Source: Pseudomonadota bacterium (GTDB lineage Bacteria; Pseudomonadota; Alphaproteobacteria; Acetobacterales; Acetobacteraceae). Taken from it: 51,762 nucleotides of DNA. The stretch spans positions 1-51,762 of the forward strand of contig JAKBBM010000008.1 of NCBI GenBank assembly GCA_021808545.1, given 5' to 3'. Positions 6,946 to 36,482 of this stretch are shown piece by piece. Position 1 is the first letter of the stretch; each line of letters opens with the position of its first letter. The position numbers were made by a program, and so were the translations under genes. The notes below the pieces were generated by a model that saw nothing but the letters and a program-made list of their open reading frames with translations, made no database searches and was not told where the DNA came from.

Positions 6946-6980
6946 CGGGCGGCCCAGACGGAGCCGCCCGTTTTGTTTTC
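6946..6980. terminator. Bidirectional terminator between prfB and the LpxR-like gene
   Basis: CGGGCGGC and GCCGCCCG form a perfect 8 bp stem with a 9 nt loop, followed by TTTTGTTTT on the plus strand. The stem is preceded by AAAAC, which gives GTTTTA on the minus strand. It separates two convergent genes and probably stops both. Confidence 0.88.
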
Positions 6981-7989
6981 AGAACCGGGCCGAGATCGCG
7001 ACCGAGCCGTACTGGAAGGCCGGGGCCGAGCCATGGAATTCCGGTGTCTCGAATGTCTCCACCGCTGAGATTCGCACGCCGCGATAAATAATCGCCCCGC
7101 CAATCTCTAAATCCCCTTGCAGCGGAATCAGCGATGCATGCCGGCTGGCGGTAAAATCATTCCCCTGGATCAACATATTATGCGCCACCACGCGGCCCAG
7201 CGCGCCGGCGAACACGTACCAGACCAGCGGCCGGGTTGGGGTGTAGGCATCGGTGCCAGAGAGCTGCGGCTGGATGAGGGCAGGCCCAAAATCTGAATGC
7301 AGCCCCTGGCCAAAGCGCACAATCCCGCCGGCCTGGGCATAAATTTCAGTATTGCCGGCCTGAGCCGAGATTTGCGGCAACGCCTGCACGCCCAGCCCAT
7401 TGCCGAAATCGAGCAGATCGGCCCGCCAGATGCGCGCGCCGGAAACATCCAGAGTCGGCTCATTATGAAGCTGATAATGCCAGCCGCGATTGGGCGTCTG
7501 GCCGATAATTTCATGAAACCCGTTCTGCACGCTCTGTCCCAGCGCCGCCGGCCCCACAATGCCCACAGCCAGACCCGCCACGCTGCGCGTACTTATCGTG
7601 TCCTGGATCAAGCTGAACCTGACTGACAAATCCCCAGCATAGGGGCGGTCATTCGGGTTGGGATTGTAGAGCTGCGTATCGGTGGGCGTGAAGATCACCT
7701 GTTGCAGGTCGATCTCCATGCGCTGCGTGCCGGGCCCAAAAAACTGGCGGCCAAGGCCGCTGACAAAACCAGGCAGATCCCCCGTTGGGCTCACATAACC
7801 CAGGCGCAGGCCATTTGTATAAAGCTCGTCCGTGCTGGGCACGGAGAGCGCATCATTTTCCAGCTGCGCGGTCACGATGCTCGCCGGATCGGGCGGCGGC
7901 GGCTGATTCTGCGCGCGCGCGGCATAGGGCAGCGCCAACAGGGTAAGAGACGCAAAGGCGACGAAACGAGTACGTGACACGATTTTCAT
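6979..7989 (-). CDS. Lipid A deacylase, LpxR family (DUF2219)
   Basis: This is a predicted outer-membrane beta-barrel hydrolase that removes the 3'-acyloxyacyl group of lipid A in LpxR homologues. It has a signal peptide (1-26, ending ARA-Q). Family motifs are LENDAL (N45-D46, matching the LpxR active-site Asn-Asp), DELYTNGLRLGY, NPNDRPYAG and GFHEIIG (H159, probable catalytic His). It ends in an aromatic beta-strand terminating in Phe (VAISARF), as expected for BAM-inserted barrels. The 336-residue length fits the family. Activity on this organism's lipid A is inferred. It is transcribed alone. Confidence 0.85.
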   Translation of the reverse strand: MKIVSRTRFVAFASLTLLALPYAARAQNQPPPPDPASIVTAQLENDALSVPSTDELYTNGLRLGYVSPTGDLPGFVSGLGRQFFGPGTQRMEIDLQQVIFTPTDTQLYNPNPNDRPYAGDLSVRFSLIQDTISTRSVAGLAVGIVGPAALGQSVQNGFHEIIGQTPNRGWHYQLHNEPTLDVSGARIWRADLLDFGNGLGVQALPQISAQAGNTEIYAQAGGIVRFGQGLHSDFGPALIQPQLSGTDAYTPTRPLVWYVFAGALGRVVAHNMLIQGNDFTASRHASLIPLQGDLEIGGAIIYRGVRISAVETFETPEFHGSAPAFQYGSVAISARF

Positions 7990-9315: not shown

Positions 9316-9930
9316 TTAGCGGGAGTAGAATTCCACCACCAGATGCGGCTCCATCTGCACCGGATAGGGCACATCGGCCAGCTTGGGCGCGCGCATGAAG
9401 CGGCCCTTCATCGCGCGATGGTCAACCTCGATATATTCCGGCACGTCGCGCTCGGCGCTCTGTGCGGCATCCAGCACCACTGCGAGCTGCTTGGATTTCT
9501 CGCGCACCTCGATCACATCCTCATCGCGGACCTGATAAGAGGGAATGTTCACCTTCTTGCCATTGACCATGACATGCCCATGGCTGACGAGCTGGCGCGC
9601 GGCAAATGGCGTGATCGCGAATTTCAGGCGGTAGACCACCGCATCCAGGCGGCGCTCCAGCAGCTCGATCAGGTTTTCGGAGGTGTCGCCCTTACGGCGC
9701 ACGGCCTCCTCGTAATATTTGTAGAACGCCTTTTCGGAGATATTGCCGTAATAGCCCTTCAGCTTCTGCTTGGCCATCAGCTGCACGCCGTAATCGGAGG
9801 GCTTCTTGCGGCGCTGGCCATGCTGGCCGGGGCCATATTCGCGCTTATTGACCGGCGATTTCGCCCGGCCCCATAAATTCACGCCCAGACGGCGGTTAAT
9901 CTTATACTTACTCTCGGTGCGCTTGGTCAC
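9316..9930 (-). CDS. rpsD: 30S ribosomal protein S4
   Basis: S4 is a primary 16S rRNA-binding protein that nucleates the 30S body. The conserved N-terminus [21 protein letters not shown] identifies the start as GTG 9930 (VTKRTES), not the longer ORF from 10029. An AAAGG-like site lies upstream. The S4 RNA-binding domain ([41 protein letters not shown]) is complete. The 204-residue length is typical of alphaproteobacterial S4. It stands alone, which is usual for this class, and has its own terminator. Confidence 0.97.
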
Positions 9931-10041: not shown

Positions 10042-13000
10042 TTACCTGCCCCTCCTTGCCGCGTCAACCGGCTGCGGGCGCACCCAACTCTGCGCGATCG
10101 CGGCCAAGGGCAGTACAATTTCGCGCGCGGCCAGTGGCAGAATAATCGCGCCCTTCGCCCCCATCCAGGTTCCGGCATCGCCGGGCGCGCGCGGGTACCA
10201 TCCCTCTTCCAGTCGCGCGCCGCGCATCTCGCCCAGGCAAATGCCAAGCTCGCGCCGGTCCTCTGACTCCGGGTCGGTCTCGGCCGGGGCGCTGGCCGCG
10301 CTTAGCAGGATGAGCCTGCGCACGGGCTGGGCAAAACAAAGCCGTGCGCGGCGTTCGTCCCCGCTGCGCGTAATCTCGGGCACCAGCTCCTGCCCGCCAG
10401 CCACAACGCGCAAGGTGGGGTAAAAACTGGTCGAGAACCCGGCCACCACCGCAATGTCATGCAGGCGGCGGCGAATTTGCGCCAAACGCGGCCCGCCGGT
10501 TACATGCGGCGCGCACGGCTTACGCGCCGGGCAGCGGCGGCCAAGCTCCCGATACAGGGGCCCGCGATTGCCATTGTCAAAATAGGTTTCGCAAGACAGC
10601 CCTTCGGCCAGCACCACATCGTGCCGGTCCAGCTCTATATGATAATAGGTTGTGGCCTGCGCGCTCATATCGCGCAGAATGGTGGCGCCGTTGACCAGAT
10701 GCGTCACCGGCACCAGCACACCATCCACATATACACAATGCAGCGGCGACAGGCGCAGCCGCCGATATGGCTGCCCTTCGCCAAAGGCGCCTGGCATCAC
10801 GATTACTGGCCGTGCGAAGCGCGCCGCCTCTGTTCCCAAATCAAGCGTACGCCAGCCCACCCAGCGCACCGGCCGCCTATCGCCGCGCGCGGTAATCACA
10901 GGGTCGCCCGGACGCAGCGCCTCCACCGACCTATACCCATGGGGGGTCAGAATCCCGGTGCCGCGCGCGAAACAAGGCAGCTCCCCGCCAAGCGTGAGCA
11001 ACGATCCCCCGACCCCGTCGGAAATCACGGTGACCGGTGCCGCGCCCGAATTTTGCAGGCTGAACGAGGCAACCAGGCTGCCCTGCGTATCCAGAACATC
11101 CAGCACGCCATTCGTGCCGCCGCTATAGCTGACCAGCGAGGGCGCCACCCCAACCAAATCGATCGCATCGCCCGCGCCCATATGCTGCACGCCAGCAACC
11201 CCAGCGGCCACATTATCCAGCACCGCCAGCGCATCGGCGCCTGCAAAGCTGAGCGCTGCACCGCTCTCGCCCCCGGCCAGCTCCAATGTGGCGCCCGGGC
11301 CAAGTTCCGCGCCGCCGGCAACAGCCAGACTGCCCGCCACCAGCAACCGCCCGCCTTGGGCCAGCAGCGTGCCCGTGCCCGCCACGGTCTGGGCCACAAT
11401 CTCTCCATTTCCGGCCAGCAAACCATCAAGCTGCAAACTGCCCGCCGCCAATTCGCCCCCGCTGAGGCTAAGGGCGGCCAGCTGCACAGCCCCGCTGGCC
11501 GTCACCAAGCCGGAATCTAGAATCGTGCCCCCAGATTGGCTGAGTACCGCCGCCGCCAGCGTCGCCCCGGGGCCAACCTCGATCAGGCTGCCCGCTTGCG
11601 GCGCCATTGCCCCGGTCATATCAAGCAACGCCGTGCCGCTCAGCTGTATGCTGCCCGCACCAAGCGCGCTTGCGGCGGCGAGCGTGGCATCGCCGCTCAG
11701 GCGCAGCGTGCCATTATCCAGCACAGTGCCCAGCGTTGCGTGCGCGCTGCCATATACCGCCAGCGTGCCGCTGGCCCCCAATGTCGCGGCGGCGGCCTCC
11801 AGCGTGCCGCCCAGTGCGAGCCCCGCCGCGCCCGAGAGACCAATTTGCAGCGACCCGGCGGCGCTGAGCCCGCCCAGAATCGCCGCCTCGCTGCCTGCTC
11901 CCGCTGCGGAAGCCGCCAAAACCATATCCCCGCTCAGGGAAAAATCATGGGTCAGCACATCCAGCCTGCCCGCGCCGCTGGCATCGCCCAGCGTTACCCC
12001 GCCCGCCAGCGCCACCTGCGCGGCGGCGCCAAACACCGCCTGCCCGCCGCCCTCCACCACCAGCGCGGTGCCAGAATAGCCGGTGGCGCGCAGCGCATCG
12101 TTAAATGTCACCAGCCCGCTCACCTGCGCGCCGCCTAGCACGTAGGGCGTTGTTATGTCTGGCATTCCAGCGGCAGGGCCAAAAGCCACCATCTCGGCGC
12201 TGGTGACCGGCCCGCCACCATAGGCGCTGACCGTGCCGGTTCCGCCCGCCGCAATCGTGGCCGTGGCCTGCAGCCCGGCCAGCAGCCCGGCATTGCTGGT
12301 AAAGCTCAGCATATCGGCCAGGCCATTGCCGGTATAGGTCAGCGCGGCCAAATCGGCCTCCAGCGCGCTGATATTCGCCGCCGTCAGAACCAGGCTGGCA
12401 GCCGGGCTCAGCCCGCCCGTCTCCAGCACCCCCTGCCCCACGCTTACGGTCAGCACCAGGCTTTGGGTGCTGCTACCGGGCATATTCAGGCTGATGCCGG
12501 GCAATGGCTGCGCCACCCCGGCACTGGCGGCCAAATTCGCGGCCAGCGAAATGGCGGCTGTGGCCGGGCGCAGAAACACGGTTGAATCCCCAGCCGCATC
12601 GGTGCCCGCACTGGGCACAAGCCAGGCGGCGATGCTGGAGAAAATTGTATAACTATCGGTCGTGCCGCTGGCATCCAGGCCCGACACGTCAAACGAACCG
12701 GCGCCGATATTATAGACGCTGAGGTTGCTCAACCCAGGAAAAATTAGCTCATCGCCCGGGGCGAACCCGGTTACCGTACCCGAGAAAACCTGCGGCCCGT
12801 TAATAACAAAGGCGCCCCCAGCACCGCCCAGCGGGTTGGCATAGCCGCCACCCACCGGCATGGCGCCGACCCCGGCAAAGCTCAGCGTCACGGAATTATC
12901 GATGGTCAGCGGCGTGGTGGTGAAAATGCCAAAGAGCGGCGCTTGCGGCCCCAGCACCATTACGCCGCCGCCACCCACTGCCAGATCTGTGCCGCCGGTT

Positions 13001-14283
13001 AGCAGCCCGGCATCTATTTGCAGCGTCTCGCCCCCCAGGGCGGCAATCGTGCCTGGCCCGGCAATGGTCCCGGCATTGGCGAAATTACCCGCACTCAGCG
13101 TGCCGCCCCCGGCCAGCATGGCGCCGCTGGCCAGCGAAAGTGCGACCACCCCGCCCGTCTGCGCATCACCAACGGCCAGCGTACCGCCGGCAAAATCGAG
13201 CAAGGCCGATCCACTCAGCGCCACCTCGCCGGTAAAGGAGGCGCCATCCCCCACCAGCAGCGTACCGCTCTCTTGCAAACCCACCGCCGCCAGCGCGCCA
13301 AAGTCAAAACTCGTGCCGCCCAGGAAGATGTTGTTATAGGGCGATTCCAGCGCCGCATCGGGCGCAATGGACACAGCCCCGCCACCGCCAACATTGCCCA
13401 GCACAGAGAGCGTGCTCCCAATGCCCATTGTGCCGGTCAGCGTGGCCGGGCCGTCAATCAGCGTGTTATTGCCGGCCGCAAAGGTGCCGCCCAGCGCCGC
13501 CGTGCCCACATTATAGAGGAAAATATTGCCATAGGTCAGTTCGCGCGGCAGCACGCCGCTGGCATTCCACAGCGAATAATCGAGATGCTGCCCCCCAGTC
13601 ACGGTGGGGCCGGCAAATTCCAGCCCGGCGAGCAGTGTGTTCAGCGCGCCGATCTCATCGGCGGTGAAGCCAAGCTGAATGGTGCCCGTGCCAAGCCCCT
13701 TCGCCGCAATGCCGGAAAGCTGATTCACTCCCGGCAATTCCAGCACCCCCGCGCGCACCGAAAGGGTCAGGCTCAGCGTTTCCTCATCCCCCAGCCCCAT
13801 GGCGGCAAGACCGCTGGCAATGGGGTCGGAGAGCAGCATATCAGGCAGCGCGACCAGGCTGTTGGGGTGCAGGGTCACCAAGGTCGCGGGAGCAACAAAG
13901 GCCGGCCCGGTCAGCGGCACCACATCCACGGCCAGGCTGGTCTGCGCGCTCAAAGCCGCGCTATCGGTGGCGGACAGGCTCAGCACATCGCCCGCCGTCC
14001 CCACCGGCTCGGTTAGTTCCAGACTGGCCAGGGCCGCATTCACCTGGGCTTCATCGCCGCGCAGTGTCAGGCTGTTGCCGGTGCCAGACACCGTGGCCCC
14101 GCCCAAACTGCTGGCCGAGAGCAGGGCCGCGCCATTACCGGCCTGCACGCTCACACTCAACTGATCGGTGGGGCTGGGCGCGCTCACGCGCAAACCAGGC
14201 CCCTGACCAAGCGAGGACAGCGTGGCATTGCCGGCCAGCACGGTCAGCGTCGCGGGGGAGGAAATATCGAGCCGGCTGGTCAC
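10042..14283 (-). CDS. Large Ala/Gly-rich repeat protein with C-terminal Hint_2 domain
   Basis: The 1413-residue protein begins at GTG 14283, the first start after an in-frame TAA. No signal peptide is visible. Residues about 1-1090 are repetitive, rich in Ala, Gly, Leu, Ser and Thr, with short beta-type units such as LSGTALLDMTG. Adhesin or autotransporter passenger domains (beta-helix or cadherin-like) look similar. A Hint_2 (hedgehog/intein) domain starts at Cys1104 (PCFARGTGILTPHGYRSVEALRPGDPV) and runs through RLSPLHCVYVDGVLVP and YYHIELDRHDVVLAEG. A about 160-residue tail follows. Hint domains can autocleave at the N-terminal Cys. It is probably surface or secreted, but export route and role are unknown. 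Confidence 0.8.
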   Translation of the reverse strand: MTSRLDISSPATLTVLAGNATLSSLGQGPGLRVSAPSPTDQLSVSVQAGNGAALLSASSLGGATVSGTGNSLTLRGDEAQVNAALASLELTEPVGTAGDVLSLSATDSAALSAQTSLAVDVVPLTGPAFVAPATLVTLHPNSLVALPDMLLSDPIASGLAAMGLGDEETLSLTLSVRAGVLELPGVNQLSGIAAKGLGTGTIQLGFTADEIGALNTLLAGLEFAGPTVTGGQHLDYSLWNASGVLPRELTYGNIFLYNVGTAALGGTFAAGNNTLIDGPATLTGTMGIGSTLSVLGNVGGGGAVSIAPDAALESPYNNIFLGGTSFDFGALAAVGLQESGTLLVGDGASFTGEVALSGSALLDFAGGTLAVGDAQTGGVVALSLASGAMLAGGGTLSAGNFANAGTIAGPGTIAALGGETLQIDAGLLTGGTDLAVGGGGVMVLGPQAPLFGIFTTTPLTIDNSVTLSFAGVGAMPVGGGYANPLGGAGGAFVINGPQVFSGTVTGFAPGDELIFPGLSNLSVYNIGAGSFDVSGLDASGTTDSYTIFSSIAAWLVPSAGTDAAGDSTVFLRPATAAISLAANLAASAGVAQPLPGISLNMPGSSTQSLVLTVSVGQGVLETGGLSPAASLVLTAANISALEADLAALTYTGNGLADMLSFTSNAGLLAGLQATATIAAGGTGTVSAYGGGPVTSAEMVAFGPAAGMPDITTPYVLGGAQVSGLVTFNDALRATGYSGTALVVEGGGQAVFGAAAQVALAGGVTLGDASGAGRLDVLTHDFSLSGDMVLAASAAGAGSEAAILGGLSAAGSLQIGLSGAAGLALGGTLEAAAATLGASGTLAVYGSAHATLGTVLDNGTLRLSGDATLAAASALGAGSIQLSGTALLDMTGAMAPQAGSLIEVGPGATLAAAVLSQSGGTILDSGLVTASGAVQLAALSLSGGELAAGSLQLDGLLAGNGEIVAQTVAGTGTLLAQGGRLLVAGSLAVAGGAELGPGATLELAGGESGAALSFAGADALAVLDNVAAGVAGVQHMGAGDAIDLVGVAPSLVSYSGGTNGVLDVLDTQGSLVASFSLQNSGAAPVTVISDGVGGSLLTLGGELPCFARGTGILTPHGYRSVEALRPGDPVITARGDRRPVRWVGWRTLDLGTEAARFARPVIVMPGAFGEGQPYRRLRLSPLHCVYVDGVLVPVTHLVNGATILRDMSAQATTYYHIELDRHDVVLAEGLSCETYFDNGNRGPLYRELGRRCPARKPCAPHVTGGPRLAQIRRRLHDIAVVAGFSTSFYPTLRVVAGGQELVPEITRSGDERRARLCFAQPVRRLILLSAASAPAETDPESEDRRELGICLGEMRGARLEEGWYPRAPGDAGTWMGAKGAIILPLAAREIVLPLAAIAQSWVRPQPVDAARRGR

Positions 14284-14421: not shown

Positions 14422-16653
14422 ATGAAGACCGTGCATAAAAAACCCCGCGCCAAGGCGCGCCCCGTGGCGGTGGCCCCGCGTTATGCGGCCTTGCCCAGCC
14501 GCGCGGATGTAAAGCGCTTTCTGGCCGAGGCCGGGCACAAGGTGCATCTGCGCGATGTCGCGCGGGCTTTTTCCATAGCGCCTGAGGATAAGAAGGCCCT
14601 GCGCGGAATCATGAAAAGCCTGGAGATGAGCGGCGATGCCGAACGCACGGCCCGCCGGCGCTTTACCGAGGCCGGGCGCCTGCCGGAGAATGCGCTCATC
14701 GAGGTCACCGGCATTGACCGCGATGGCGAGGCCATCGCCCGTCCGGTCGCGTGGGAAGGGCCGGGCCGCCCGCCGGTTATCTTCATGCAGGCCGAGGCCA
14801 AGGGCCAGCCAGCCCTGGCCCCCGGCGCGCGGGTTCTGGCCCGGCTTAAACCTCTGGGGCCGGATAAATATGAGGGCCGCACCATCCGCCGCATCGCCGA
14901 ACAGGCGGGCAGCATTGTCGGGCTGTTCCACCCCACACCGCAAGGCGGGCGCATAGAGCCCACCGACCGGCGCCAGAAAACCGAATGGATTGTGCCGGCG
15001 GGCGAGACGATGGACGCGCGCGAAGGCGAGATTGTGCGCGCCGAGCCGCTGCCCGGCGGCCGTGCCTTTGGCCCAAAGCCCGCACGGATCACGGAAAAGC
15101 TCGGCAGTATAGAGGATGCGCGCGCGGTCAGCCTCATCGCCATCGCGCAGCATGGCATTCCGCTGGATTTTCACCCCACGGCCTTAAAAGAGGCCGACAA
15201 GGCCAAACCCATAGCCCTTGGCCGCCGCACCGATCTGCGCGATTTACCCCTCATCACCATCGATGGCCAGGATGCGCGCGATTATGACGATGCTGTCTTT
15301 GCCGACGCCGAGGAACATGGCTACCGGCTGATCGTCGCCATCGCCGATGTGGCGCATTACGTACGGCCAGGCTCGGCCCTGGACCGTGCGGCGCGCGAAC
15401 GCGGCAATAGCTGCTATTTCCCCGACCGCGTGGTGCCGATGCTGCCCGAGGCCCTGTCCAATGGCTGGTGCTCGCTCAAACCCGACGAGGATCGCGGCTG
15501 CCTGTTCGTGGAAATGCATATCGACGTGCATGGCCATAAGCAGCGCCACCGGTTCGGGCGCGGGTTGATGCGCTCATCCGCGCGCAAAACCTACGAGCAG
15601 ATCCAGGCCGAGTTCGAGCAAAATCCGCAAGCCCATGCCAGCTTATTTGCCGCCCATGCCGCCTTGGCCGAGGCCCGGCACAAGCGCGGCACGCTCGATC
15701 TCGACCTGCCGGAGCGTAAAGTGACATTGTCGGAGGAGGGGCAGGTGGAAAGCGTTGCCCCGCGCCCGCGCCTGACCAGCCACCGGCTGATCGAGGAATT
15801 CATGATCCTCGCCAATGTCTGCGCGGCCGAGGAGCTGGAGCGCCTGCGCCTGCCCTGCATGTACCGCGTGCATGCCCCGCCCAGCCCTGAAAAGCTGGAT
15901 AATCTGCGCTATTTCCTCTCCGGGCTCGACATTTCCCTCCCCCCCGGCGACCAGCTCCACCCGCGCGATCTCGACCGCATCCTGCGCCTGGTGGAAGACA
16001 CGCCGCATGCCAGCATGGTGAACGAAACCATGCTGCGCTCGCAAAGCCAGGCGGAATATGCGCCCGGCAATATCGGGCATTTTGGCCTGGCCCTGCGGCG
16101 CTATGCGCATTTCACCTCACCGATTCGCCGCTATGCCGACCTGCTGGTGCACCGGGCGTTAATTACAGGGCTGAAGCTCGGGCGCGACGGGCTCTCGACC
16201 GAGGACATGGCCGGGCTGGACGACATCGCCCAGCAAATCACCCAGACAGAGCGCCGCGCCACCCTGGCCGAGCGCGATTCCACCGACCGCTACCTTGCGC
16301 TGTATTTGCAACATCGCATCGGAGAGTTGTTCTCGGGCCGGGTTTCAGGGGTGACGAAATTCGGGCTATTCGTCACTCTCACGGAAAGCGGGGCAAGCGG
16401 ATTCCTGAGCATGGCAAATCTGCCGAATGATCGTTGGATGTATGATGAGCCGACCCAAACCCTGTCTGGGCGTCACTCGCGCCATGTCTTTACCCTGGCA
16501 CAGATGCTGGATGTACGTCTGCACGAGGCCCGGCCGGTAACGGGCGGCCTGCTCTTTACCCTGCCTGAGCTGCCCGCGCTGCCCGGCGCGCCAACACCCC
16601 GACGCAAAACAATGCGCGCCAAACCCACGCCCAAGCCAAAGCATAAAAGGTGA
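14422..16653 (+). CDS. rnr: Ribonuclease R
   Basis: This 3'-5' exoribonuclease degrades structured RNA and rRNA fragments. The start is ATG 14422 (MKTVHKKPRAK), preceded by AGAGGG; the track's 14335 start has no support. The order is an N-terminal winged-helix-like region, cold-shock domains, an RNB catalytic domain with the Asp cluster DGQDARDYDDAV, then an S1 domain (GRVSGVTKFGLFVTL). A Lys/Arg/Pro-rich tail (KPTPKPKHKR) follows. The 743-residue length is typical. Its stop overlaps the GTG start of the S41 protease (GTGA), so the two are co-transcribed and probably translationally coupled. Confidence 0.96.
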   Translation: MKTVHKKPRAKARPVAVAPRYAALPSRADVKRFLAEAGHKVHLRDVARAFSIAPEDKKALRGIMKSLEMSGDAERTARRRFTEAGRLPENALIEVTGIDRDGEAIARPVAWEGPGRPPVIFMQAEAKGQPALAPGARVLARLKPLGPDKYEGRTIRRIAEQAGSIVGLFHPTPQGGRIEPTDRRQKTEWIVPAGETMDAREGEIVRAEPLPGGRAFGPKPARITEKLGSIEDARAVSLIAIAQHGIPLDFHPTALKEADKAKPIALGRRTDLRDLPLITIDGQDARDYDDAVFADAEEHGYRLIVAIADVAHYVRPGSALDRAARERGNSCYFPDRVVPMLPEALSNGWCSLKPDEDRGCLFVEMHIDVHGHKQRHRFGRGLMRSSARKTYEQIQAEFEQNPQAHASLFAAHAALAEARHKRGTLDLDLPERKVTLSEEGQVESVAPRPRLTSHRLIEEFMILANVCAAEELERLRLPCMYRVHAPPSPEKLDNLRYFLSGLDISLPPGDQLHPRDLDRILRLVEDTPHASMVNETMLRSQSQAEYAPGNIGHFGLALRRYAHFTSPIRRYADLLVHRALITGLKLGRDGLSTEDMAGLDDIAQQITQTERRATLAERDSTDRYLALYLQHRIGELFSGRVSGVTKFGLFVTLTESGASGFLSMANLPNDRWMYDEPTQTLSGRHSRHVFTLAQMLDVRLHEARPVTGGLLFTLPELPALPGAPTPRRKTMRAKPTPKPKHKR

Positions 16654-28039: not shown

Positions 28040-28966
28040 ATGTCTCTGTGGCCCGGCGCGCATCTGCCCAACCTTAACGGCAAAATCGCCATCATCACCG
28101 GCGCCAATAGCGGCATTGGCTTTTACAGCGCGCTGGAATTGGCCCGGGCCGGCGCCACCGTCATTCTCGCCTGCCGCAACACGCAAAAGGGCGAAAAAGC
28201 CGCCGCGCTGATAAATGAAAAAGCCCCGGACCGGGCCATCTTCATGCCGCTCGACCTTGCCGATTTTGCCGCCGTGCATGAATTCGCCGGCAATTTTAAA
28301 GAGCGTTACGGCGCGCTCGACCTGCTGATCAATAATGCCGGAATCATGGCCCCACCCCAGCGCCTGCTCACCGCGCAAGGGCTCGAATTGCAGTTCGGCG
28401 TGAATTTTATCGGCCATTTCCTGCTCACCGCCCTGCTGCTCACCCCGCTGCTCGACGCCCGGGCCCCGCGCGTGATCCAGCTTTCCTCGGTCGCGCACCG
28501 GCGCGGGCGGATCGATTTCGCCGATCTGCAATCCGTGCGCGCCTACCGGGGCTGGACCGCCTATGCCCAATCCAAGCTCGCCATGCTGGTCTTCGCGCAG
28601 GAACTCGCCCGCAGGGCCGATGCGGGGGGCTGGGGCATTCTCTCGCTCGCGGCGCATCCCGGTGTCGCGGCCACGGAACTGGTGGCCAACGGCCCAGGCC
28701 CGGCCAGCGCCATGGCCTGGTTGCTGAAGCTGGCCTCGCCCCTTGTGCGCCAATCCGCCACCGCCGGGGCGTGGCCCATTCTGCTTGCCGCAACAGACCC
28801 GTACGCCCAGCCCGGCGCCTATTACGGCCCGCAAGGGCTATTTGAATTTCGCGGCCGGCCGGGCATCGCCAAGATCGAGCCCGCCGCCTTCAACCTGCAA
28901 ACCGGCGCGCAACTATGGGAGGAAGCCGAACGCCTGACCGGCGAGAGCTTTAAACCCGCCCCGTAA
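28040..28966 (+). CDS. Short-chain dehydrogenase/reductase
   Basis: This is a NAD(P)-dependent SDR of the retinol dehydrogenase/WW-oxidoreductase-like group. It has ITGANSGIGFYSALELARAG (TGxxxGIG cofactor motif), LLINNAGIM (NNAG), a catalytic Ser region VIQLSSVAHRRG and YAQSKLAMLVF (YxxxK). The 308-residue length is typical of this subgroup. GGAGAAGTAA places a good RBS across the hemB stop, so it is co-transcribed with hemB. The substrate is unknown. Its 3' end overlaps the convergent NDUFAF6-like gene by 17 bp. Confidence 0.88.
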   Translation: MSLWPGAHLPNLNGKIAIITGANSGIGFYSALELARAGATVILACRNTQKGEKAAALINEKAPDRAIFMPLDLADFAAVHEFAGNFKERYGALDLLINNAGIMAPPQRLLTAQGLELQFGVNFIGHFLLTALLLTPLLDARAPRVIQLSSVAHRRGRIDFADLQSVRAYRGWTAYAQSKLAMLVFAQELARRADAGGWGILSLAAHPGVAATELVANGPGPASAMAWLLKLASPLVRQSATAGAWPILLAATDPYAQPGAYYGPQGLFEFRGRPGIAKIEPAAFNLQTGAQLWEEAERLTGESFKPAP

Positions 28967-29651
28967 GGGCCGCGCGCAGCACCGCCAAGCGGCGGCGCAA
29001 CATAGTGGCCCCGGGCGCTGCCAGATCGACCCTGGCCAACGCCCCCGGCAATGAAGCCGCCAGCCCGGCGCGCGGGATACGGACATTAAGACACCGCCGC
29101 GCTTGGGCGATCATGTCGGCTTGATCCGTGCCATCGGCCGGCAGCAAAGAGCGCCCTTGGCTTGCAAGATACGGGGCCGCGCGCAAAATACCGGTAATGG
29201 CATAGGCCGTGCCCACATCCTCGATCTCCTGTGACTCCACCCCCAGAACCCTGCCCGCGACTCGCGCAAGCCCGCCGCCCGTGCCACGCGCATAGGCCAG
29301 AAAGGCAGGCAGATCTGGGATGTCTGGGGCCGCCTCGACCTCGCGCGCGGCAATCAACGCCAGCAGATCCGCGCGCGCAAAGCGCCTCGCCGCCAGGGCA
29401 GCACCCAGCGGCGTGGCCAATTCATGCTGGCGCGGGGTCCCCTCCACCACCTCGCGCCACCATTGCAGGCGGATCATCGCCAGCAGCGGTTCACTGGCTA
29501 CTTCGCGGGCACGCGCCAGCTCGTGATTGAACAAATAAAGCAGCGCCAAGGGCGCGCGCGCGGGCCGGGGCGCGAACAAGGTGCAAAAATACCTGTCCGG
29601 ATCGGCACGGCGTAGACGATTAAGCAGCAGAGCATCGCTTGACGGGGGCAT
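28950..29651 (-). CDS. Squalene/phytoene synthase-family protein, NDUFAF6-like
   Basis: The 233-residue protein has the helical squalene/phytoene synthase fold signature (FCTLFAPRPARAPLALLYLFNHELARAREVASEPLLAMIRLQWWREVV and AYAITGILRAAPYLASQGRSLLP). It lacks the Asp-rich prenyl-diphosphate motifs: the first reads NHELARARE. This pattern matches the NDUFAF6/C8orf38 group linked to respiratory complex I assembly, not a terpene synthase. The start is ATG 29651, with GGAG 5 nt upstream; ATG 29654 is adjacent. The track start 29726 would overlap sodB. It diverges from sodB across 55 bp. Confidence 0.75.
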   Translation of the reverse strand: MPPSSDALLLNRLRRADPDRYFCTLFAPRPARAPLALLYLFNHELARAREVASEPLLAMIRLQWWREVVEGTPRQHELATPLGAALAARRFARADLLALIAAREVEAAPDIPDLPAFLAYARGTGGGLARVAGRVLGVESQEIEDVGTAYAITGILRAAPYLASQGRSLLPADGTDQADMIAQARRCLNVRIPRAGLAASLPGALARVDLAAPGATMLRRRLAVLRAALTGRV

Positions 29652-29706
29652 CATCTCTCCATAGCTGTGCATTACCACGAAACAAACCTTGTTCGGAGAG
29701 TGTCCC

Positions 29707-30309
29707 ATGGCATTTGAACTGCCCACCCTGCCTTATTCCTCCAACGCGCTGGCCGCTGTCGGCATGTGCCAGGAAACATTGGAGCTGCACCATGGCAAGC
29801 ACCATAACGCCTATGTCACGACGCTGAACGGCTTTGTGGAAAAAATGCCCGAGCTGCAGGGCAAGAGCCTCGAAGATATCGTGAAATTCGCTCATAACAA
29901 GCCCGAGCTGACCGCGGTGTTCAACAATGCCGGCCAGCATCTCAACCACAGCCAGTTCTGGCTGAGCATGAGCCCGACCGGCGGCAAGATGCCGGGTAAG
30001 CTGGAAGCCAAGATTGTTGAGGATTTCGGCTCCGTCGCCGCCTTTAAGGATGCCTTCAAAACCGCGGGCGCCACGCAATTTGGCTCCGGCTGGGCGTGGC
30101 TTGTGCTCTCGCCCGAGGGCAAGCTGAAAGTCACCAAGACCCCCAACGCCTCCACCCCGCTGGTGACCGGCGAAGGCAAGGTCCTGCTGGTGTATGATGT
30201 GTGGGAGCACGCTTATTATGTGGATTTCCGCAATCGCCGCCCGGATTACATCACCAACTGGCTCGATAAAATCGCCAATTACGAATATGCCGAGGCCCAG
30301 CTTGGTTAA
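29707..30309 (+). CDS. sodB: Superoxide dismutase, Fe type
   Basis: SodB dismutates cytosolic superoxide to peroxide and oxygen. The start is ATG 29707 (MAFELPTLPY), with GGAGAG upstream. Predicted metal ligands are H28, H81, D164 and H168 (DVWEHAYYVDFRNRRPDYI). Gln77 in FNNAGQHLNH and Ala in GSGWAWLVL are Fe-type markers, since Mn enzymes place the Gln near WAWL. The 200-residue length is normal. A very strong hairpin terminator follows. Confidence 0.95.
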   Translation: MAFELPTLPYSSNALAAVGMCQETLELHHGKHHNAYVTTLNGFVEKMPELQGKSLEDIVKFAHNKPELTAVFNNAGQHLNHSQFWLSMSPTGGKMPGKLEAKIVEDFGSVAAFKDAFKTAGATQFGSGWAWLVLSPEGKLKVTKTPNASTPLVTGEGKVLLVYDVWEHAYYVDFRNRRPDYITNWLDKIANYEYAEAQLG

Positions 30310-30342
30310 GCCCCAGGCTTAAGTTTTAAAAGTTTTTGAGGG

Positions 30343-30381
30343 TGTGGGGACTTTTTCCAAAAAGTCCCCACATTTATTTTG
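30343..30381 (+). terminator. Strong sodB terminator with 14 bp perfect stem
   Basis: TGTGGGGACTTTTT and AAAAAGTCCCCACA pair perfectly around CC, followed by TTTATTTTG. It lies 33 bp after the sodB stop, facing the convergent GNAT gene. A related T6-CC-A6 hairpin lies at 41479-41516. Confidence 0.9.
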
Positions 30382-30411
30382 TCCCTTTTTAAACGGGGCG
30401 GCGCCCCCCCC

Positions 30412-30906
30412 TTACAAAACCTTTGCGTAATAATGCACGACATTGCCAGGCGCCGATAAGTCGGCCGGACCGACTTGCTGGAACCGGAATTTGGCATGAA
30501 ACCCCGCCGAGGCTGGGTTGGGCGGATCGCCGTTAATCTCGCACACGGCCCGCGTATGGCCGGCGGCACGGGCGCGCTTGAATAATTCGTCATACAACCG
30601 CCCCGCATGGCCCTGCCCCCGCGCGGCCGGTTCCGTCACCACGCGGTCAATATAAATAAACCGGGGAAAATGCGCCTTGAACCACAGGAAATGCGGTGAA
30701 TCATAATCGGCGTCCTGATCGAAGGCGAGAATGAAAGCCTCTGTTCCATTCATCGTCGCGGCAAAAAAGGCCTGGCCGACCAGATGCTTGAACCGCGCCT
30801 GATCGGCAAAGGGCAGATCCCGCCCTTGCGCGTTATTGAGCGCACGTAGAGTCTCAAGATCCAGATTCTCGGGCGTGAGGAGGCTAAGCATGAAGCCAGT
30901 TTGCAT
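30412..30906 (-). CDS. GNAT-family N-acetyltransferase
   Basis: The acetyl-CoA-binding motif A is visible as IDRVVTEPAARGQGHAGRLYDELFKRARAAG (R/Q-x-x-G-x-G/A). It is followed by the conserved ending AVCEINGDPPNPASAGFHAKFRFQQVG. It resembles the COG3818-type acetyltransferases of about 165 residues. Start choice is uncertain: ATG 30906 has a G-run upstream, and ATG 30891 (MLSLLTPENL) is also possible. The acceptor substrate is unknown. It is convergent with sodB. Confidence 0.8.
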   Translation of the reverse strand: MQTGFMLSLLTPENLDLETLRALNNAQGRDLPFADQARFKHLVGQAFFAATMNGTEAFILAFDQDADYDSPHFLWFKAHFPRFIYIDRVVTEPAARGQGHAGRLYDELFKRARAAGHTRAVCEINGDPPNPASAGFHAKFRFQQVGPADLSAPGNVVHYYAKVL

Positions 30907-31102
30907 CCATGCCCCCCGGTGGAGCAAGTCTTGTTTCTTGGCAATCCAGCCTTGGCTGCCGCTTCCAGCTTGAGGGTGGATTTTTCATTTCGAACAACGA
31001 TCATAAATAATTTTGATTGTTTGATTAAGCCGCTCTCATTATTAAAAAATATACAACAACATGTCCTAATTTAAACTTGGCTCAAGCCCCGCGGTCTCTA
31101 AG

Positions 31103-31122
31103 GTTGAGGATTGTCTCTCAAC
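31103..31122 (+). promoter_or_regulatory. 5' UTR inverted repeat before the DUF4168-like gene
   Basis: GTTGAG-GATTGTCT-CTCAAC lies directly upstream of the AAGGAG ribosome-binding site of the gene at 31134. The small stem could affect translation; no function is shown. The 227 bp upstream of the gene are notably AT-rich and hold no other recognisable feature. Confidence 0.35.
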
Positions 31123-31133
31123 AAGGAGTACCA

Positions 31134-31577
31134 ATGATTTTAGCCAAGAATCTCACGCCATTTCCTATCGCGCGCACCATTCCGCGCCGCGTAATGACCG
31201 CCTTTGGGATGATGGCGGGACTCTCCATGGCGGGCCCGGCTATTGCGCAGACAACAACAGCCCGCCCGTCCCTGCCAGCGCACAACGCGCAGACGGCTCA
31301 CTTCTCCAGCAAAACAATTGAGCGAGCCGGCCACGCCATGAAGGATGTTGAAAAAATCCGGTCGCGCTATTTGCCTGAAATGCAGGCCGCACGGAAGCAC
31401 AACGATACGCAAAAAATGCAGAAGATCAACAAGATCGCGACCCGGGCAGAATAACAAAAACTCGCCGCTAACCGCATTTCTCTAAACAAATACAAAGAGG
31501 TCATCAGCGCCGCTCAAACCGACCCTCGGTTACGCGAACGGCTTCTCAAAGCATACGCTTCGCCTTCAACGAAATGA
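31134..31577 (+). pseudogene. Exported DUF4168-like protein interrupted by an in-frame TAA
   Basis: ATG 31134 has a good AAGGAG RBS. The first 106 codons encode a signal-like N-terminus (ending GPAIAQ) and a helical domain, KDVEKIRSRYLPEMQAARKHNDTQKMQKINKIATRAE, then TAA at 31452. Reading on in the same frame gives QKLAANRISLNKYKEVISAAQTDPRLRERLLKAYAS and a TGA at 31575. This is the normal C-terminal half of a DUF4168-type domain (the YN-I-AAQ-DP-LR pattern). The gene is intact except for one codon, which suggests a recent CAA-to-TAA-type mutation, a sequencing error or readthrough. Its role is unknown. Confidence 0.7.
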
Positions 31578-31724
31578 CATCAACGCCGTGACGAAATAGC
31601 CGGCGGCGGCGAGGGAGCTTCGGCACCGCGCCGCCGTCATGCCCGCATGCCCGTACCGTCCCCAAAAGGATTGAAAGACGCCAGTGGAGACCAATATCTC
31701 GCCGGGACATAAACGGAGATCTTC

Positions 31725-32777
31725 ATGTTCGTCTGCACTGGCTATGGCACACAATCCCCCACAGCCCCCCTGGAACCACTGACCTTCAACCGCCGCGATG
31801 TCGGTGAAAATGACGTCGAAATCGACATTCTCTATTGCGGCGTCTGCCATTCCGATCTGCATTTCGCCCGTGATGAATGGCATTTCACCAAATATCCCGC
31901 CGTGCCGGGCCACGAAATCGTGGGCCGGATCAAGCGCGTTGGCGCTGGCGTGCGCAAATATAAGGCGGGCGATCTGGTCGGGGTGGGCTGCCTGGTCGAT
32001 TCCTGCCGTACCTGCCCCTCCTGCCAAGAAGGGCTGGAACAATATTGCGATGCGGGCATGGCGGGCGGCACCTATGGCGGCATCGAGCGGCAGACCGGCG
32101 AGCCGACCAAGGGCGGGTATTCGGAAAAAATTGTCGTGGATGAAAAATACGTTCTGCGCATACCCGACAATCTTGATCCCGCCGCCGCCGCCCCGCTGCT
32201 ATGCGCGGGCATCACGCTTTATTCGCCGCTCCGCCATTGGCAGGCGGGGCCCGGCAAGAAGGTTGGCATTATCGGGCTTGGCGGGCTTGGCCATATGGGG
32301 GTTAAGCTCGCCCACGCCATGGGGGCGCACACAGTGCTGTTCACCACGTCCCCCGGCAAGGTGGAAGATGGCCGCAAGCTTGGCGCGGATGAGGTGATCA
32401 TTTCCAAAAACGCCGCCGACATGGCCCTGCATAATAACAGCTTCGACCTGATTATCGATGCGGTCTCCGCCAGCCATGATCTTGAGCCCTATTTCGCGCT
32501 ACTCAAGCGCGAGGGGACGATGGTGCAGGTCGGCGCGCCCGAACATCCGCTGCCCATCAATGTTTTTCCCCTGTTGCTCAAGCGCCGCAATTTCTCCGGC
32601 TCGCTCATTGGCGGCATCCGGGAAACGCAAGAGATGCTGGATTTCTGCGGCCAGCATAACATCACGGCCGAGATCGAGCTGATCTCGATGAATTATATCA
32701 ACGAGGCTTATGAGCGGATGCTGAAATCGGACGTGAAATACCGCTTCTGCATCGACATGAATACGCTGAAGGCCTAA
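31725..32777 (+). CDS. Zinc-dependent NAD(P) alcohol dehydrogenase, cinnamyl/YahK type
   Basis: This is a medium-chain dehydrogenase/reductase that reduces aldehydes or oxidises alcohols. The catalytic zinc ligands are in YCGVCHSDLH and PGHEIVG. The structural zinc loop is CRTCPSCQEGLEQYC. The cofactor motif is GLGGLGHMGVKLAHAMG. The segment GGTYGGIERQTGEPTKGGYSE fits the cinnamyl alcohol dehydrogenase-like group, whose bacterial members act on a broad range of aldehydes with NADPH. The 350-residue length is typical. GGAG lies 6 nt before the ATG. The 147 bp upstream hold no clear regulatory site. Confidence 0.92.
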   Translation: MFVCTGYGTQSPTAPLEPLTFNRRDVGENDVEIDILYCGVCHSDLHFARDEWHFTKYPAVPGHEIVGRIKRVGAGVRKYKAGDLVGVGCLVDSCRTCPSCQEGLEQYCDAGMAGGTYGGIERQTGEPTKGGYSEKIVVDEKYVLRIPDNLDPAAAAPLLCAGITLYSPLRHWQAGPGKKVGIIGLGGLGHMGVKLAHAMGAHTVLFTTSPGKVEDGRKLGADEVIISKNAADMALHNNSFDLIIDAVSASHDLEPYFALLKREGTMVQVGAPEHPLPINVFPLLLKRRNFSGSLIGGIRETQEMLDFCGQHNITAEIELISMNYINEAYERMLKSDVKYRFCIDMNTLKA

Positions 32778-32845
32778 CCCTTCGCGCAATAGCCGCCGCC
32801 GCTCCGGCGGCGGCCAAACTTCATGCCAAAAACAACGGAAACGCC

Positions 32846-33844
32846 ATGTCCCGCGCCACCACCCTGCATCTTCCCGCCCGTGAGATTCCGGTGCCCCGTT
32901 CCGTCAGTCCGACCGCGCAGGCCTTCCTGGCTTCGGCCGCCCGGCCCATCCCCCCGCAGCCCGCGCCAAGCGACAAGGCCGCCTGGCGCGATTATATCCG
33001 CGAGTCCGACCAGACAATCCTCACCATGGCCGCCGAAATCGCCAAAAGCGCCGCACGCCAGGAGATGGCCGCACAGATCAGGAGCGAGCCCTTCAGCCTG
33101 GGCGGCGTGCCAGGCTACCGGATCGACCCGCACCCCAACGTGCCGGCCGACCGCATCCTTTATCTCATCCATGGCGGCGCGCTGGTCATGGGGGCGGGCG
33201 AGGTTTGCCGCCTCATGGCCACGGGCACGGCACTCGCCATCGGTGCGCGGACCTATGCGGTCGATTACCGCATGCCGCCAGACCATCCCTATCCCACCCC
33301 GCTGGAAGATTGCCTTGCCGGCTACCAGTTCCTGCTCCAACACCACGATCCAGCGCAGATCGTGGTGCATGGGGGCTCGGCGGGTGGCAATCTCGCCGCC
33401 GCCATGGTTCTGCGCCTGCGCGCGGCAGGCGCCCCCATGCCCGCCGGGATTATCCTGTCCACCCCGGAACTCGACCTCACCGAATCGGGAGACAGTTTCG
33501 CCGTCAATGCCGGGGCGGACATCGTGCTACCCCCATCGCTGATGAACGCCAACCTGCTCTATGCCAACGGGCACGATTTGGCGGACCCGTATCTCTCACC
33601 GCTCTTCGCGGATCTCTCCCAAGGGTTTCCGCCCACCTTGCTCACCGCCGGCACGCGGGATTTGTTCCTCTCCAACGCCGTGCGCATGCATAACGCGCTG
33701 CGCCGCTCCGGCAACCATGCCGAGCTGATCATCGAGGAAGCCATGCCCCATGGCGGCTTTTTCGGCATGGCGCCGGAAGACCACGCCCTGAACGCGGACA
33801 TACGAGATTTCGCCGAACGCGCCTGGAGCGGCCGGCTGCGCTAA
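32846..33844 (+). CDS. Alpha/beta hydrolase, hormone-sensitive-lipase-type esterase
   Basis: The oxyanion-hole motif LIHGGALVMGAG and the nucleophile elbow VHGGSAGGNLAAAMV (Ser in GGSAGGN) mark the HSL/acetylesterase family. The acid residue is probably in DPYLSPLFADLS, and the His in EEAMPHGGFFGM. There is no signal peptide, so the protein is cytoplasmic. The 332-residue length is normal. It begins 68 bp after the alcohol dehydrogenase and may share its transcript. The substrate is unknown, probably a short-chain ester. Confidence 0.88.
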   Translation: MSRATTLHLPAREIPVPRSVSPTAQAFLASAARPIPPQPAPSDKAAWRDYIRESDQTILTMAAEIAKSAARQEMAAQIRSEPFSLGGVPGYRIDPHPNVPADRILYLIHGGALVMGAGEVCRLMATGTALAIGARTYAVDYRMPPDHPYPTPLEDCLAGYQFLLQHHDPAQIVVHGGSAGGNLAAAMVLRLRAAGAPMPAGIILSTPELDLTESGDSFAVNAGADIVLPPSLMNANLLYANGHDLADPYLSPLFADLSQGFPPTLLTAGTRDLFLSNAVRMHNALRRSGNHAELIIEEAMPHGGFFGMAPEDHALNADIRDFAERAWSGRLR

Positions 33845-33845
33845 T

Positions 33846-33877
33846 AAAAAAGCCCCGGCGCGAACCGGGGCTTTTTG
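33846..33877. terminator. Bidirectional terminator between esterase and hpnJ
   Basis: AAAAAGCCCCGG-CGCGAA-CCGGGGCTTTTTG: a 12 bp stem with A-run on the left and T-run on the right works on both strands. It lies 1 bp past the esterase stop and 2 bp before the end of hpnJ. Confidence 0.93.
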
Positions 33878-33879
33878 AT

Positions 33880-35319
33880 TCAGGCCGCCTTGGCGGTGCT
33901 GCGCTCCTTCAGGAAGGCGAAGAACTCCACGCCTTCGCGCAGGCGCCGCACCAGCATTTGCGGCGAGGTCGCCATCTCCTTCAGGATCGACATGATCTTG
34001 GAGGGGCGGAAATAGAATTGCCGGTAAATCTCCTCCACCGCGTCGAAAATCTCCTGATGCGAGAGATGCGGATAATGCAGCGGCGCGATCTGCACGCCAT
34101 GTTCGTCGATCAGCTCCGCATGTTCCACATCCAGCCAGCCCTCGCGCACGGCCTGGTTATACAGGAACGTGCCAGGATAAGGGGCAGCCAGCGACACCTG
34201 AATGGTGTGCGGATTGATCTCCTTGGCGAAGGCGATGGTCTCTTTCAGGGTCTCACGCGTCTCGCCCGGCAGGCCGACGATGAAGGTGCCGTGGATCTTG
34301 ATACCAAGCTTATGGCAATCGGCGGTGAAGCGCTTGGCTACCTCGATGCGCATGCCCTTCTTGATATTATGCAGGATCTGCTGGTTGCCACTCTCATAGC
34401 CCACCAAGAGCAGGCGCAGTCCGTTTTCCTTCAGCACTTTCAGCGTCGCATACGGCACATTGGCCTTGGCGTTGCACGACCAGGTGACCCCCATCTTGCC
34501 AAGCTCGCGGGCAATTGCCTCGGCGCGCGGCAAATCGTCGGTGAAGGTATCGTCATCGAACATGAATTCCTTCACCTGCGGGAACAATTCCTTCGCCCGC
34601 TTGATCTCGGCGATCACGTTCTCCACCGAGCGTGTGCGGTATTTATGCCCGCCCACAGTCTGTGGCCACAGGCAGAAGGTGCAGTGCGACTTGCAGCCCC
34701 GCCCGGTATAGATGGAAATATAGGGGTGCTTGAGATAGCCGATGAAATAATCCTCGATCTTGAGATGCTTCTTGTACACATCCACGACAAAGGGCAGCTC
34801 ATCCATATTCATCAGCAGCGGGCGGTCCTCGTTCTTCACAATCTCGCCTGCCTCGTTCCGCCACCAAATTCCCTTTACATCCTTGAGTTCGGCGCCCTCG
34901 GCGATTTCCTTGATGGTGAAATCGAACTCATTACCGCAGACAAAATCCAGCACCTTGGCGCGCGCCAGCGATTCCTCGGGCTGCACCGCCACCTTGGCGC
35001 CGATGAAGCCGACTTTCAGCTTCGGGTTCAGCGCCTTGAACTCTTCGGCCACCTTCACATCATTGCCAAAGGAAGGGGTGGAGGTGTGGATGATCAGCAG
35101 ATCATGCGTTTTCGCGTGCGGCAGCACGTCAGCCATGGTCAGGCGCGCGGGCGGCGCGTCGATCAGCGTGGAATCGGGCAGCAAGGCGGCCGGCTGGGCC
35201 AGCCAGGTTGGAAACCAGAAGGATTTGATCTCACGCCGTGCCTGATAGCGCGAGCCAGCGCCACCATCGAAACCGTCAAAGGAGGGAGGCTGCAGGAACA
35301 AGGTTTTCAAAATCGTCAT
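33880..35319 (-). CDS. hpnJ: Hopanoid biosynthesis radical SAM protein HpnJ
   Basis: HpnJ is the radical SAM enzyme needed for the cyclitol ether head group of bacteriohopanetetrol derivatives, through ring contraction of the sugar. The N-terminal about 180 residues are a B12-binding-like domain. The 4Fe-4S motif is GRGCKSHCTFC (C209, C213, C216), followed by a SPASM-less radical SAM barrel. I start at ATG 35319 (MTILKTLFLQPPSFDGFDGG), with GAGAGAGA upstream. The 479-residue length fits the family. It is the last gene of dxs-hpnM-hpnI-hpnJ, with a 10 bp gap after hpnI. Confidence 0.92.
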   Translation of the reverse strand: MTILKTLFLQPPSFDGFDGGAGSRYQARREIKSFWFPTWLAQPAALLPDSTLIDAPPARLTMADVLPHAKTHDLLIIHTSTPSFGNDVKVAEEFKALNPKLKVGFIGAKVAVQPEESLARAKVLDFVCGNEFDFTIKEIAEGAELKDVKGIWWRNEAGEIVKNEDRPLLMNMDELPFVVDVYKKHLKIEDYFIGYLKHPYISIYTGRGCKSHCTFCLWPQTVGGHKYRTRSVENVIAEIKRAKELFPQVKEFMFDDDTFTDDLPRAEAIARELGKMGVTWSCNAKANVPYATLKVLKENGLRLLLVGYESGNQQILHNIKKGMRIEVAKRFTADCHKLGIKIHGTFIVGLPGETRETLKETIAFAKEINPHTIQVSLAAPYPGTFLYNQAVREGWLDVEHAELIDEHGVQIAPLHYPHLSHQEIFDAVEEIYRQFYFRPSKIMSILKEMATSPQMLVRRLREGVEFFAFLKERSTAKAA

Positions 35320-35329
35320 GGTCTCTCTC

Positions 35330-36457
35330 TCAACGTTCGCCGGTCTTGCCGGCATCGGCATGCATCATTTGGCCGCGCCAATCCACCTGGCTGCCGGCAA
35401 AGCTTACAATATAGATGAGTGTGGAACAGAAATCCCGCAACAAGAAAAGCCAGCCGGCGCCGGTGGCGGGCATGCGTAAAATGGCATCCACCCGCCGCAC
35501 CGCAACCATGCGCGCCAGCAGTACAGCCAAAAACAGCCCCCACGACCAGAGCGCCCCCTGCGCGAACAGCACCGCCAGCCCCGCCCAGAACAGCGAGAAT
35601 TGCAGGACCGAGGCGCCATAAGCCAGCGGCACCAGGGCGCGGATGGTCCGGGCCCAGCGCAGCTCGTGCCGGAACAAGGCGCGGAAATTACCCTCCGGCA
35701 CGGTGGTCGCGGGAATCACCTGCGCCAGCGTCAGCTTATAGCCAGCGGCCACCACCAACCGGCCCAGCACCTGGTCGTCGGCCAGATTATTGGCCACGGC
35801 CTGCAAGCCACCCACTTCAGCCAGCACAGAGCGGGTCAGCGCCATGGTCACACCCAAACAATCCTGTCGCCCCAATTGGCGCGCCAGCAACGCGCCGGGC
35901 AGGAAATTATACATAATCTGGGCCGCCCCCAGCCTTGTCGCCAAAGCCGGTGTTCCCGGCAGCGCGGTATAGAGCGAGGTCACCAGCCCCACGCTCGGCG
36001 CCTCCAGCGCCGCCACCACACGGTCCAGAAAATAAGGCGGCACATGAATATCGGCATCCGACATCACCAACAGCTCATGCCGCGCCGCGGGCAACATGTT
36101 GATGAGGTTGGAGACCTTGCGGTTGCTGCCATGCAAAGTGCCGTCGACCACCACCACCACCTCACGCGTGGGATAGCGGGCGCGTAAGGCGGCCACCATG
36201 GCCAGCACCGGATCGTTGGGGTCCTGCACGCCAAAGACAATCTGATAATCTGGATAATCGATCAGAAAGAAGGATTCGAGGGCGAGCTCGGTCAATGGAT
36301 CCACCCCGCAAAGCGGCTTGAGGATGGAAACCGGCACACGCACATGCGGCGCGCGGGCTGGCGCGGCGACAAAGCGCTGCAAGAATATCGTGCCAATATA
36401 GTGCTGCGCCGCGCCAATAAGCGCGGCTAGGGCAGCAAGGGCGGCGAATAGCGCCAA
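35330..36457 (-). CDS. hpnI: Hopanoid glycosyltransferase HpnI (ceramide-glucosyltransferase-like)
   Basis: HpnI transfers N-acetylglucosamine to bacteriohopanetetrol. This GT21-type membrane enzyme has an N-terminal hydrophobic anchor, a DxD motif in MSDADIHVPPYFLD, an ADDQVLGRL segment, the (Q/R)xxRW-type HELRWARTIR motif, and C-terminal membrane segments. The start is probably TTG 36457, because GGAG lies exactly 6 nt upstream; the track start TTG 36469 has no such site. The length is then 375 residues. It sits between hpnM (25 bp gap) and hpnJ (10 bp). hpnK, which deacetylates the product, is not nearby. Confidence 0.9.
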   Translation of the reverse strand: MALFAALAALAALIGAAQHYIGTIFLQRFVAAPARAPHVRVPVSILKPLCGVDPLTELALESFFLIDYPDYQIVFGVQDPNDPVLAMVAALRARYPTREVVVVVDGTLHGSNRKVSNLINMLPAARHELLVMSDADIHVPPYFLDRVVAALEAPSVGLVTSLYTALPGTPALATRLGAAQIMYNFLPGALLARQLGRQDCLGVTMALTRSVLAEVGGLQAVANNLADDQVLGRLVVAAGYKLTLAQVIPATTVPEGNFRALFRHELRWARTIRALVPLAYGASVLQFSLFWAGLAVLFAQGALWSWGLFLAVLLARMVAVRRVDAILRMPATGAGWLFLLRDFCSTLIYIVSFAGSQVDWRGQMMHADAGKTGER

Positions 36458-36482
36458 GCCTATCTCCAAAGGACCGGATGGC

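What the first reader, a model, noticed from the sequence alone, without database searches (positions are those of the whole stretch)
10042..14283. Giant Hint-domain repeat protein with no visible signal peptide
A 1413-residue Ala/Gly-rich beta-repeat protein ends in a Hint_2 domain with Cys1104 exactly at the predicted autocleavage junction (ELP-CFARGT), plus a about 160-residue tail. Hint domains in secreted bacterial proteins can self-cleave to release a passenger or C-terminal payload. No Sec or Tat signal, no autotransporter barrel and no adjacent T1SS genes are present, so how it leaves the cell and what the tail does are open.
Basis: partly seen in the sequence, partly recalled or inferred. 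Interest (0 to 1): 0.7.

Follow-up and report, generated by a model that had tools for sequence, protein, structure and literature searches.

The report
Type-I-exported adhesin with Hint cleavage module
An acid-loving bacterium (genus Acidocella) carries a conserved giant surface-type protein that seems to leave the cell through a one-step export pump and ends in a self-cutting domain like that of animal Hedgehog proteins, plus an undescribed partner domain; the domain is a known type, but its role here is untested.

Summary
The gene (10042-14283, minus) encodes 1413 residues with Hint_2 (PF13403, E=4e-43) at residues 1103-1236, nucleophile Cys1104 and a ~160-residue tail. AlphaFold2/Foldseek place the domain beside solved intein-like domains. 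A signal peptide is excluded: an in-frame stop lies 12 nt upstream of the start codon, and all 25 full-length orthologues start alike. It is an Acidocella core gene in fixed synteny (rnr / this gene / rpsD). Export: the genome has one complete type I secretion pair elsewhere, no RTX protein, and several signal-less Hint_2 paralogues; in another alphaproteobacterial family the same domain ends RTX proteins, the canonical type I substrates. The passenger is Cys-free, nearly Lys-free and strongly acidic. Tail: conserved, homologous across families, following Hint, so a partner domain rather than a toxin payload. The intein His-Asn motif is missing, so only N-terminal cleavage (after Pro1103) is expected, as in B-type bacterial intein-like or Hedgehog domains. 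Pro at -1 argues against fast spontaneous cleavage. Cleavage and export remain unproven. Verdict: new variant of a known kind, moderate interest.

The parts
10042..14283 (-). Hint_2 protein gene, 1413 aa, GTG start forced by upstream in-frame TAA
10975..14283 (-). passenger, residues 1-1103: Cys-free, 1 Lys, 73 acidic vs 11 basic residues, predicted all-beta
13504..14283 (-). residues ~1-260: two predicted beta-sandwich (Ig/cadherin-like) domains
   Evidence: AlphaFold2 model and Foldseek hits; boundaries approximate
12559..13503 (-). residues ~261-575: first predicted beta-helix-like stretch, includes GFAPGDELIFPGL motif
   Evidence: boundaries approximate
11278..12066 (-). residues ~740-1002: second predicted beta-helix-like stretch
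   Evidence: boundaries approximate
10576..10977 (-). Hint_2 domain (PF13403), residues 1103-1236
   Evidence: fold; PDB profile match:
10972..10974 (-). Cys1104, predicted nucleophile; invariant in 25 orthologues and in 33 diverse Hint_2 domains; preceded by Pro1103
10738..10749 (-). S1179-P-L-H1182, the [S/T]xxH motif (block B); His invariant
10585..10590 (-). E1232-T1233, at the place where inteins have the terminal His-Asn; Glu invariant
   Evidence: placement against inteins by eye
10045..10521 (-). conserved tail, residues 1255-1413: helix plus beta-sandwich, no Pfam match; follows Hint in relatives
9316..9930 (-). rpsD (ribosomal protein S4), conserved downstream neighbour (24 of 25 loci)
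14422..16653 (+). rnr (RNase R), divergent upstream neighbour (20 of 25 loci)

Best explanation
An Acidocella core surface/extracellular adhesin-like protein. Inferred route: it is made without a signal peptide and exported in one step by the genome's single type I secretion system, read from its C-terminal region. Inferred processing: once outside, the Hint_2 domain folds and Cys1104 attacks the Pro1103-Cys1104 bond (N-to-S acyl shift). The thioester is resolved by water or another nucleophile, so the 1103-residue beta passenger parts from the Hint+tail module. The tail is a partner of the Hint module (export signal, folding partner or acceptor-recognition region), not a toxin. Shown: Hint fold (predicted structure) and conserved nucleophile, no signal peptide, exported-type passenger composition, conservation and synteny, one T1SS pair in the genome, RTX-Hint_2 relatives. 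Not shown: export, cleavage, adhesion.
For: Hint_2 E=3.9e-43; Foldseek best hits are 2LWY (bacterial intein-like domain), 6Y75 (BIL2) and inteins; profile hit to 2LWY E=6e-6. C1104, H1182, E1232 invariant across 33 diverse Hint_2 domains. No signal peptide in 25 orthologues or evident in the complete own-genome paralogues. Passenger: 8 Cys in all 25 orthologues together, none in 17 of them, against 4-7 in each ~300-residue C-terminal part; 1 Lys, 73 acidic vs 11 basic. T1SS: one HlyD over cut-off with an adjacent ABC carrying a C39-like domain just under cut-off; the ABC is in 22 of 23 high-quality Acidocella genomes. The own genome has no RTX repeat, so other substrates are expected. In family f23 (handles unnamed) many Hint_2 proteins carry 7-33 RTX motifs (Pfam 21 and 9 repeats). 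ABC and full-length Hint_2 co-occur in five genomes of the own family and the sixth lacks both. Hint_2 gene 4 kb from the ABC in G324 and 9 kb in L095. Passenger model resembles adhesin, cadherin and Ag43 folds locally.
Against: No Hint_2 gene within ~8 kb of the T1SS genes in 20 Acidocella genomes. Co-occurrence rests on one taxonomic family, so Fisher p=2e-7 overstates it; G319 has the ABC without Hint_2. No recognisable RTX or type I signal in this protein. Pro at -1 is invariant here and, from general knowledge of intein fusions, disfavours thioester formation. Adhesin resemblance is by fold type only (low whole-chain TM scores).
Confidence: 0.5

Rival explanations
1. Same export, but the Hint module no longer cleaves, or does so very slowly: it is kept as a structural C-terminal cap or export module.
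For: Invariant Pro1103 at -1 in 25 orthologues and Pro at -1 in 22 of 38 diverse Hint_2 proteins; Pro at -1 is known to slow intein thioester formation (own knowledge).
Against: Cys1, [S/T]xxH and the C-terminal His are kept across very divergent Hint_2 proteins, which argues for retained chemistry; the Hint part is the best conserved part of the protein.
Confidence: 0.25
2. Hedgehog-like transfer: the tail selects an acceptor and the passenger's C-terminus is esterified or amidated to a surface molecule.
For: N-cleavage-only architecture with a conserved downstream partner domain that follows Hint in several families; Hog = Hint + sterol recognition region is a precedent (PMC2362128).
Against: No acceptor known, no lipid-binding signature; tail is predicted as a beta-sandwich with no clear PDB relative.
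Confidence: 0.12
3. Polymorphic toxin: Hint releases a C-terminal toxin.
For: HINT often precedes toxin domains (PMC3482391).
Against: Tail conserved and vertically inherited, not variable; next gene is rpsD, no immunity gene; no C-terminal His-Asn.
Confidence: 0.03
4. Export by another route (Sec/type V or outer membrane vesicles) or a cytoplasmic function.
For: One autotransporter and one ShlB-like gene exist in the genome.
Against: No Sec signal or barrel in the protein; Cys-free acidic passenger.
Confidence: 0.15

Closest known systems
PF13403 Hint_2 proteins, incl. RTX-Hint_2 proteins; Hint and RTX domains are both over-represented in fast-growing marine Rhodobacteraceae (PMC12487129)
   Same: Same Hint family, C-terminal position; the RTX-Hint_2 proteins seen in family f23 have no obvious signal peptide either
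   Different: No RTX repeats; 159-residue tail with beta-sandwich instead of ~50 residues; single syntenic core gene
B-type bacterial intein-like (BIL) domains (reviewed in PMC7765530)
   Same: Intein motifs kept except the C-terminal one; N-terminal cleavage expected
   Different: Cleavage not shown here; a direct comparison with the published B-type sequences was not possible
Hedgehog C-terminal (Hog) domain
   Same: Hint followed by a partner region; N-terminal acyl shift only
   Different: Tail is a predicted beta-sandwich, not a known sterol recognition region; no evidence of an adduct
Type I-secreted large adhesins
   Same: Signal-less, Cys-free, acidic, repetitive beta passenger; T1SS in genome
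   Different: No RTX repeats; C-terminal Hint module

Membership tests
Pfam Hint_2 (PF13403) | profile score above curated cut-off | tested here: met
   147.8 vs 28.4 bits
HINT superfamily | HINT fold | tested here: met
   predicted model pLDDT 83; Foldseek to 2LWY and 6Y75, TM by target 0.71 and 0.66
HINT superfamily | Cys/Ser at position 1 and TxxH-type motif | tested here: met
   C1104 and [S/T]xxH1182
intein / A-type BIL | C-terminal His-Asn | tested here: not met
   E1232-[S/T]1233 in its place (placed by eye)
B-type BIL | intein motifs kept except the C-terminal motif | tested here: inconclusive
   pattern fits, no published B-type sequence was compared
B-type BIL | N-terminal autocleavage | not testable with these tools
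   needs protein chemistry
Hedgehog Hog domain | sterol/adduct recognition region after Hint | tested here: inconclusive
   a conserved tail exists but has no clear structural match
polymorphic toxin | variable C-terminal toxin domain with immunity gene | tested here: not met
   conserved tail, rpsD next
type I secretion substrate | no N-terminal signal and a T1SS in the genome | tested here: met
type I secretion substrate | RTX repeats | tested here: not met
   none in protein or genome; present in Hint_2 proteins of another family
type I secretion substrate | functional C-terminal export signal | not testable with these tools
   needs secretion assay
autotransporter (type V) | Sec signal and C-terminal barrel | tested here: not met

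The most novel reading that the evidence does not exclude
A bacterial counterpart of Hedgehog processing: after type I export, Hint_2 makes a thioester at Pro1103 and the tail domain directs an external nucleophile (a surface glycan or lipid) so that the giant passenger is covalently anchored to the cell surface.
Probability: 0.1. Interest if true: 0.85.

Novelty: new variant of a known kind. Interest (0 to 1): 0.45.

Why it matters
PF13403 Hint domains are amplified in Acetobacteraceae and in family f23, yet the papers searched describe no function for them. A large catalogue of HINT-processed toxins names type II, V, VII and Tc export, not type I (PMC3482391). A mostly single-copy, syntenic orthologue with a conserved partner domain in cultivated, non-pathogenic acidophiles makes the question testable: do type I substrates self-cleave outside the cell, and is the passenger anchored?

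Tried and rejected
Signal peptide missed by a wrong start: excluded by the in-frame stop and orthologue alignment. Tail as toxin payload: rejected. A domain shared by the glycosyltransferase of the T1SS cluster and the tail of the C3 paralogue: suggested by a GWA motif, not significant, dropped. Hint_2 next to T1SS genes within Acidocella: not found. First genome-contig scan with the full protein found nothing. Literature search for Acidocella plus type I secretion found nothing. The NCBIfam match to a formylmethanofuran dehydrogenase subunit lies far below its cut-off and is read as a beta-repeat artefact.

Full report
What is there. The ORF at 10042-14283 (minus) is real: 1413 residues, GTG start with an in-frame TAA 12 nt upstream. 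Pfam finds only Hint_2, residues 1103-1236, 147.8 bits against a cut-off of 28.4. Named relatives show that the host is an Acidocella.

Conservation. Orthologues exist in about 30 of 37 Acidocella genomes, most at full length (43-58% identity). The window protein and 24 full-length orthologues (25 sequences) align from end to end; all start at the same place without a signal peptide; C1104, S1179-P-x-H1182, H1215, H1221, E1232 and N1239-R1240 are invariant, and the Hint part is better conserved than the passenger. N1239 is not kept in the wider family, so it is unlikely to act as an intein-type Asn. rpsD lies downstream on the same strand in 24 of the 25 loci and rnr lies divergently upstream in 20 of 25; the five without rnr are the most divergent ones. 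rpsD is also the neighbour in Acidiphilium iwatense and a deeper relative.

Hint chemistry. The AlphaFold2 model of residues 1082-1413 (mean pLDDT 83) gives a HINT-like fold followed by a helix and a beta-sandwich. Foldseek's best PDB matches are the Clostridium thermocellum BIL domain 2LWY, the Tetrahymena BIL2 domain and inteins; a profile of 33 diverse Hint_2 domains hits 2LWY at 6e-6, over the first block only. In those 33 domains Cys1, the block B His and the Glu at 1232 are invariant. Where inteins end in His-Asn, Hint_2 has Glu-[Ser/Thr]; I placed this by the H-x(7)-G-x(3) pattern by eye. A review states that B-type BIL domains keep the intein motifs except the C-terminal one and can cleave at their N-terminus (PMC7765530), and Hedgehog uses only the initial acyl shift (PMC7664689). 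The expected product is therefore passenger 1-1103 plus Hint-tail 1104-1413. A caution: Pro1103 is invariant at -1, and Pro at -1 is known from intein work (own knowledge) to slow thioester formation.

Passenger. The AlphaFold2 model (mean pLDDT 82) is nearly all beta: two N-terminal sandwiches, two long helix-like beta stretches and an intervening sandwich (domain names are my reading of the secondary structure). Foldseek hits are adhesins, cadherins and antigen 43, with low whole-chain TM scores, so 'adhesin-like' is inference. The passenger has no Cys, one Lys and 73 acidic against 11 basic residues. Across 25 orthologues 8 Cys occur in all passengers together, 17 of them having none.

Export. 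The ORFs of the window that I scanned include no T1SS (smaller ORFs were not scanned). The genome has one HlyD over cut-off with an ABC beside it on contig C111, followed by Sel1-repeat, glycosyltransferase and ChW-like protein genes. The ABC has a C39-like domain just under the Pfam cut-off. It is present in 22 of 23 high-quality Acidocella genomes, one copy each (G016 has it split over two contigs). The genome has no RTX repeat, so the pump's substrates must be of another kind. In a sample of 387 alphaproteobacterial genomes, the five members of the own family with Hint_2 have a close ABC homologue and the sixth has neither. This supports type I export, but all five are related, and no Hint_2 gene lies within ~8 kb of the ABC in 20 Acidocella genomes. 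Loose linkage is seen in G324 (4 kb) and L095 (9 kb).

Tail. The 159-residue tail has no Pfam match. A profile finds it after the Hint domain in Acidiphilium, Methylobacterium, an unnamed alphaproteobacterium and two other genera of the family. In 61 genomes it occurs only in Acidocella; most of the matches I could place lie in open frames that also match Hint_2. Short-tail paralogues show that the sandwich is an optional addition. It is a Hint partner rather than a variable toxin.

Verdict. The class is known; the syntenic long-tail form and the type I link are the new parts.

Noticed in passing
G000 contig C114 (locus L016), 2-154 and 11675-11806: Partial Hint_2 matches at both ends of an 11.8 kb contig; repeated Hint sequence probably broke the assembly there.
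   Followed up: partly
L063:272-9465 (G000 C111): Conserved Acidocella cluster ABC-HlyD-Sel1-glycosyltransferase-ChW-like protein; the real substrates of this type I system are unknown.
   Followed up: partly
window 28950-41472: Genes of isoprenoid and probably hopanoid synthesis: squalene/phytoene synthase, radical SAM proteins (one with DUF3463), glycosyltransferase, dxs, LytB.
   Followed up: no
window 6979-7989: LpxR-type outer membrane lipid A deacylase (PF09982).
   Followed up: no
window 43966-45174: Sulfotransferase gene overlapping the end of a glycosyltransferase gene on the other strand.
   Followed up: no
L186:5053-8508: A Hint_2 protein of genus g28 with the Hint domain in the middle and a 719-residue C-terminal extension, unlike the others.
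   Followed up: no
G000 C79:49190-49891 and C78:1065-1901: One classical autotransporter barrel and one ShlB-like gene in the same genome.
   Followed up: no
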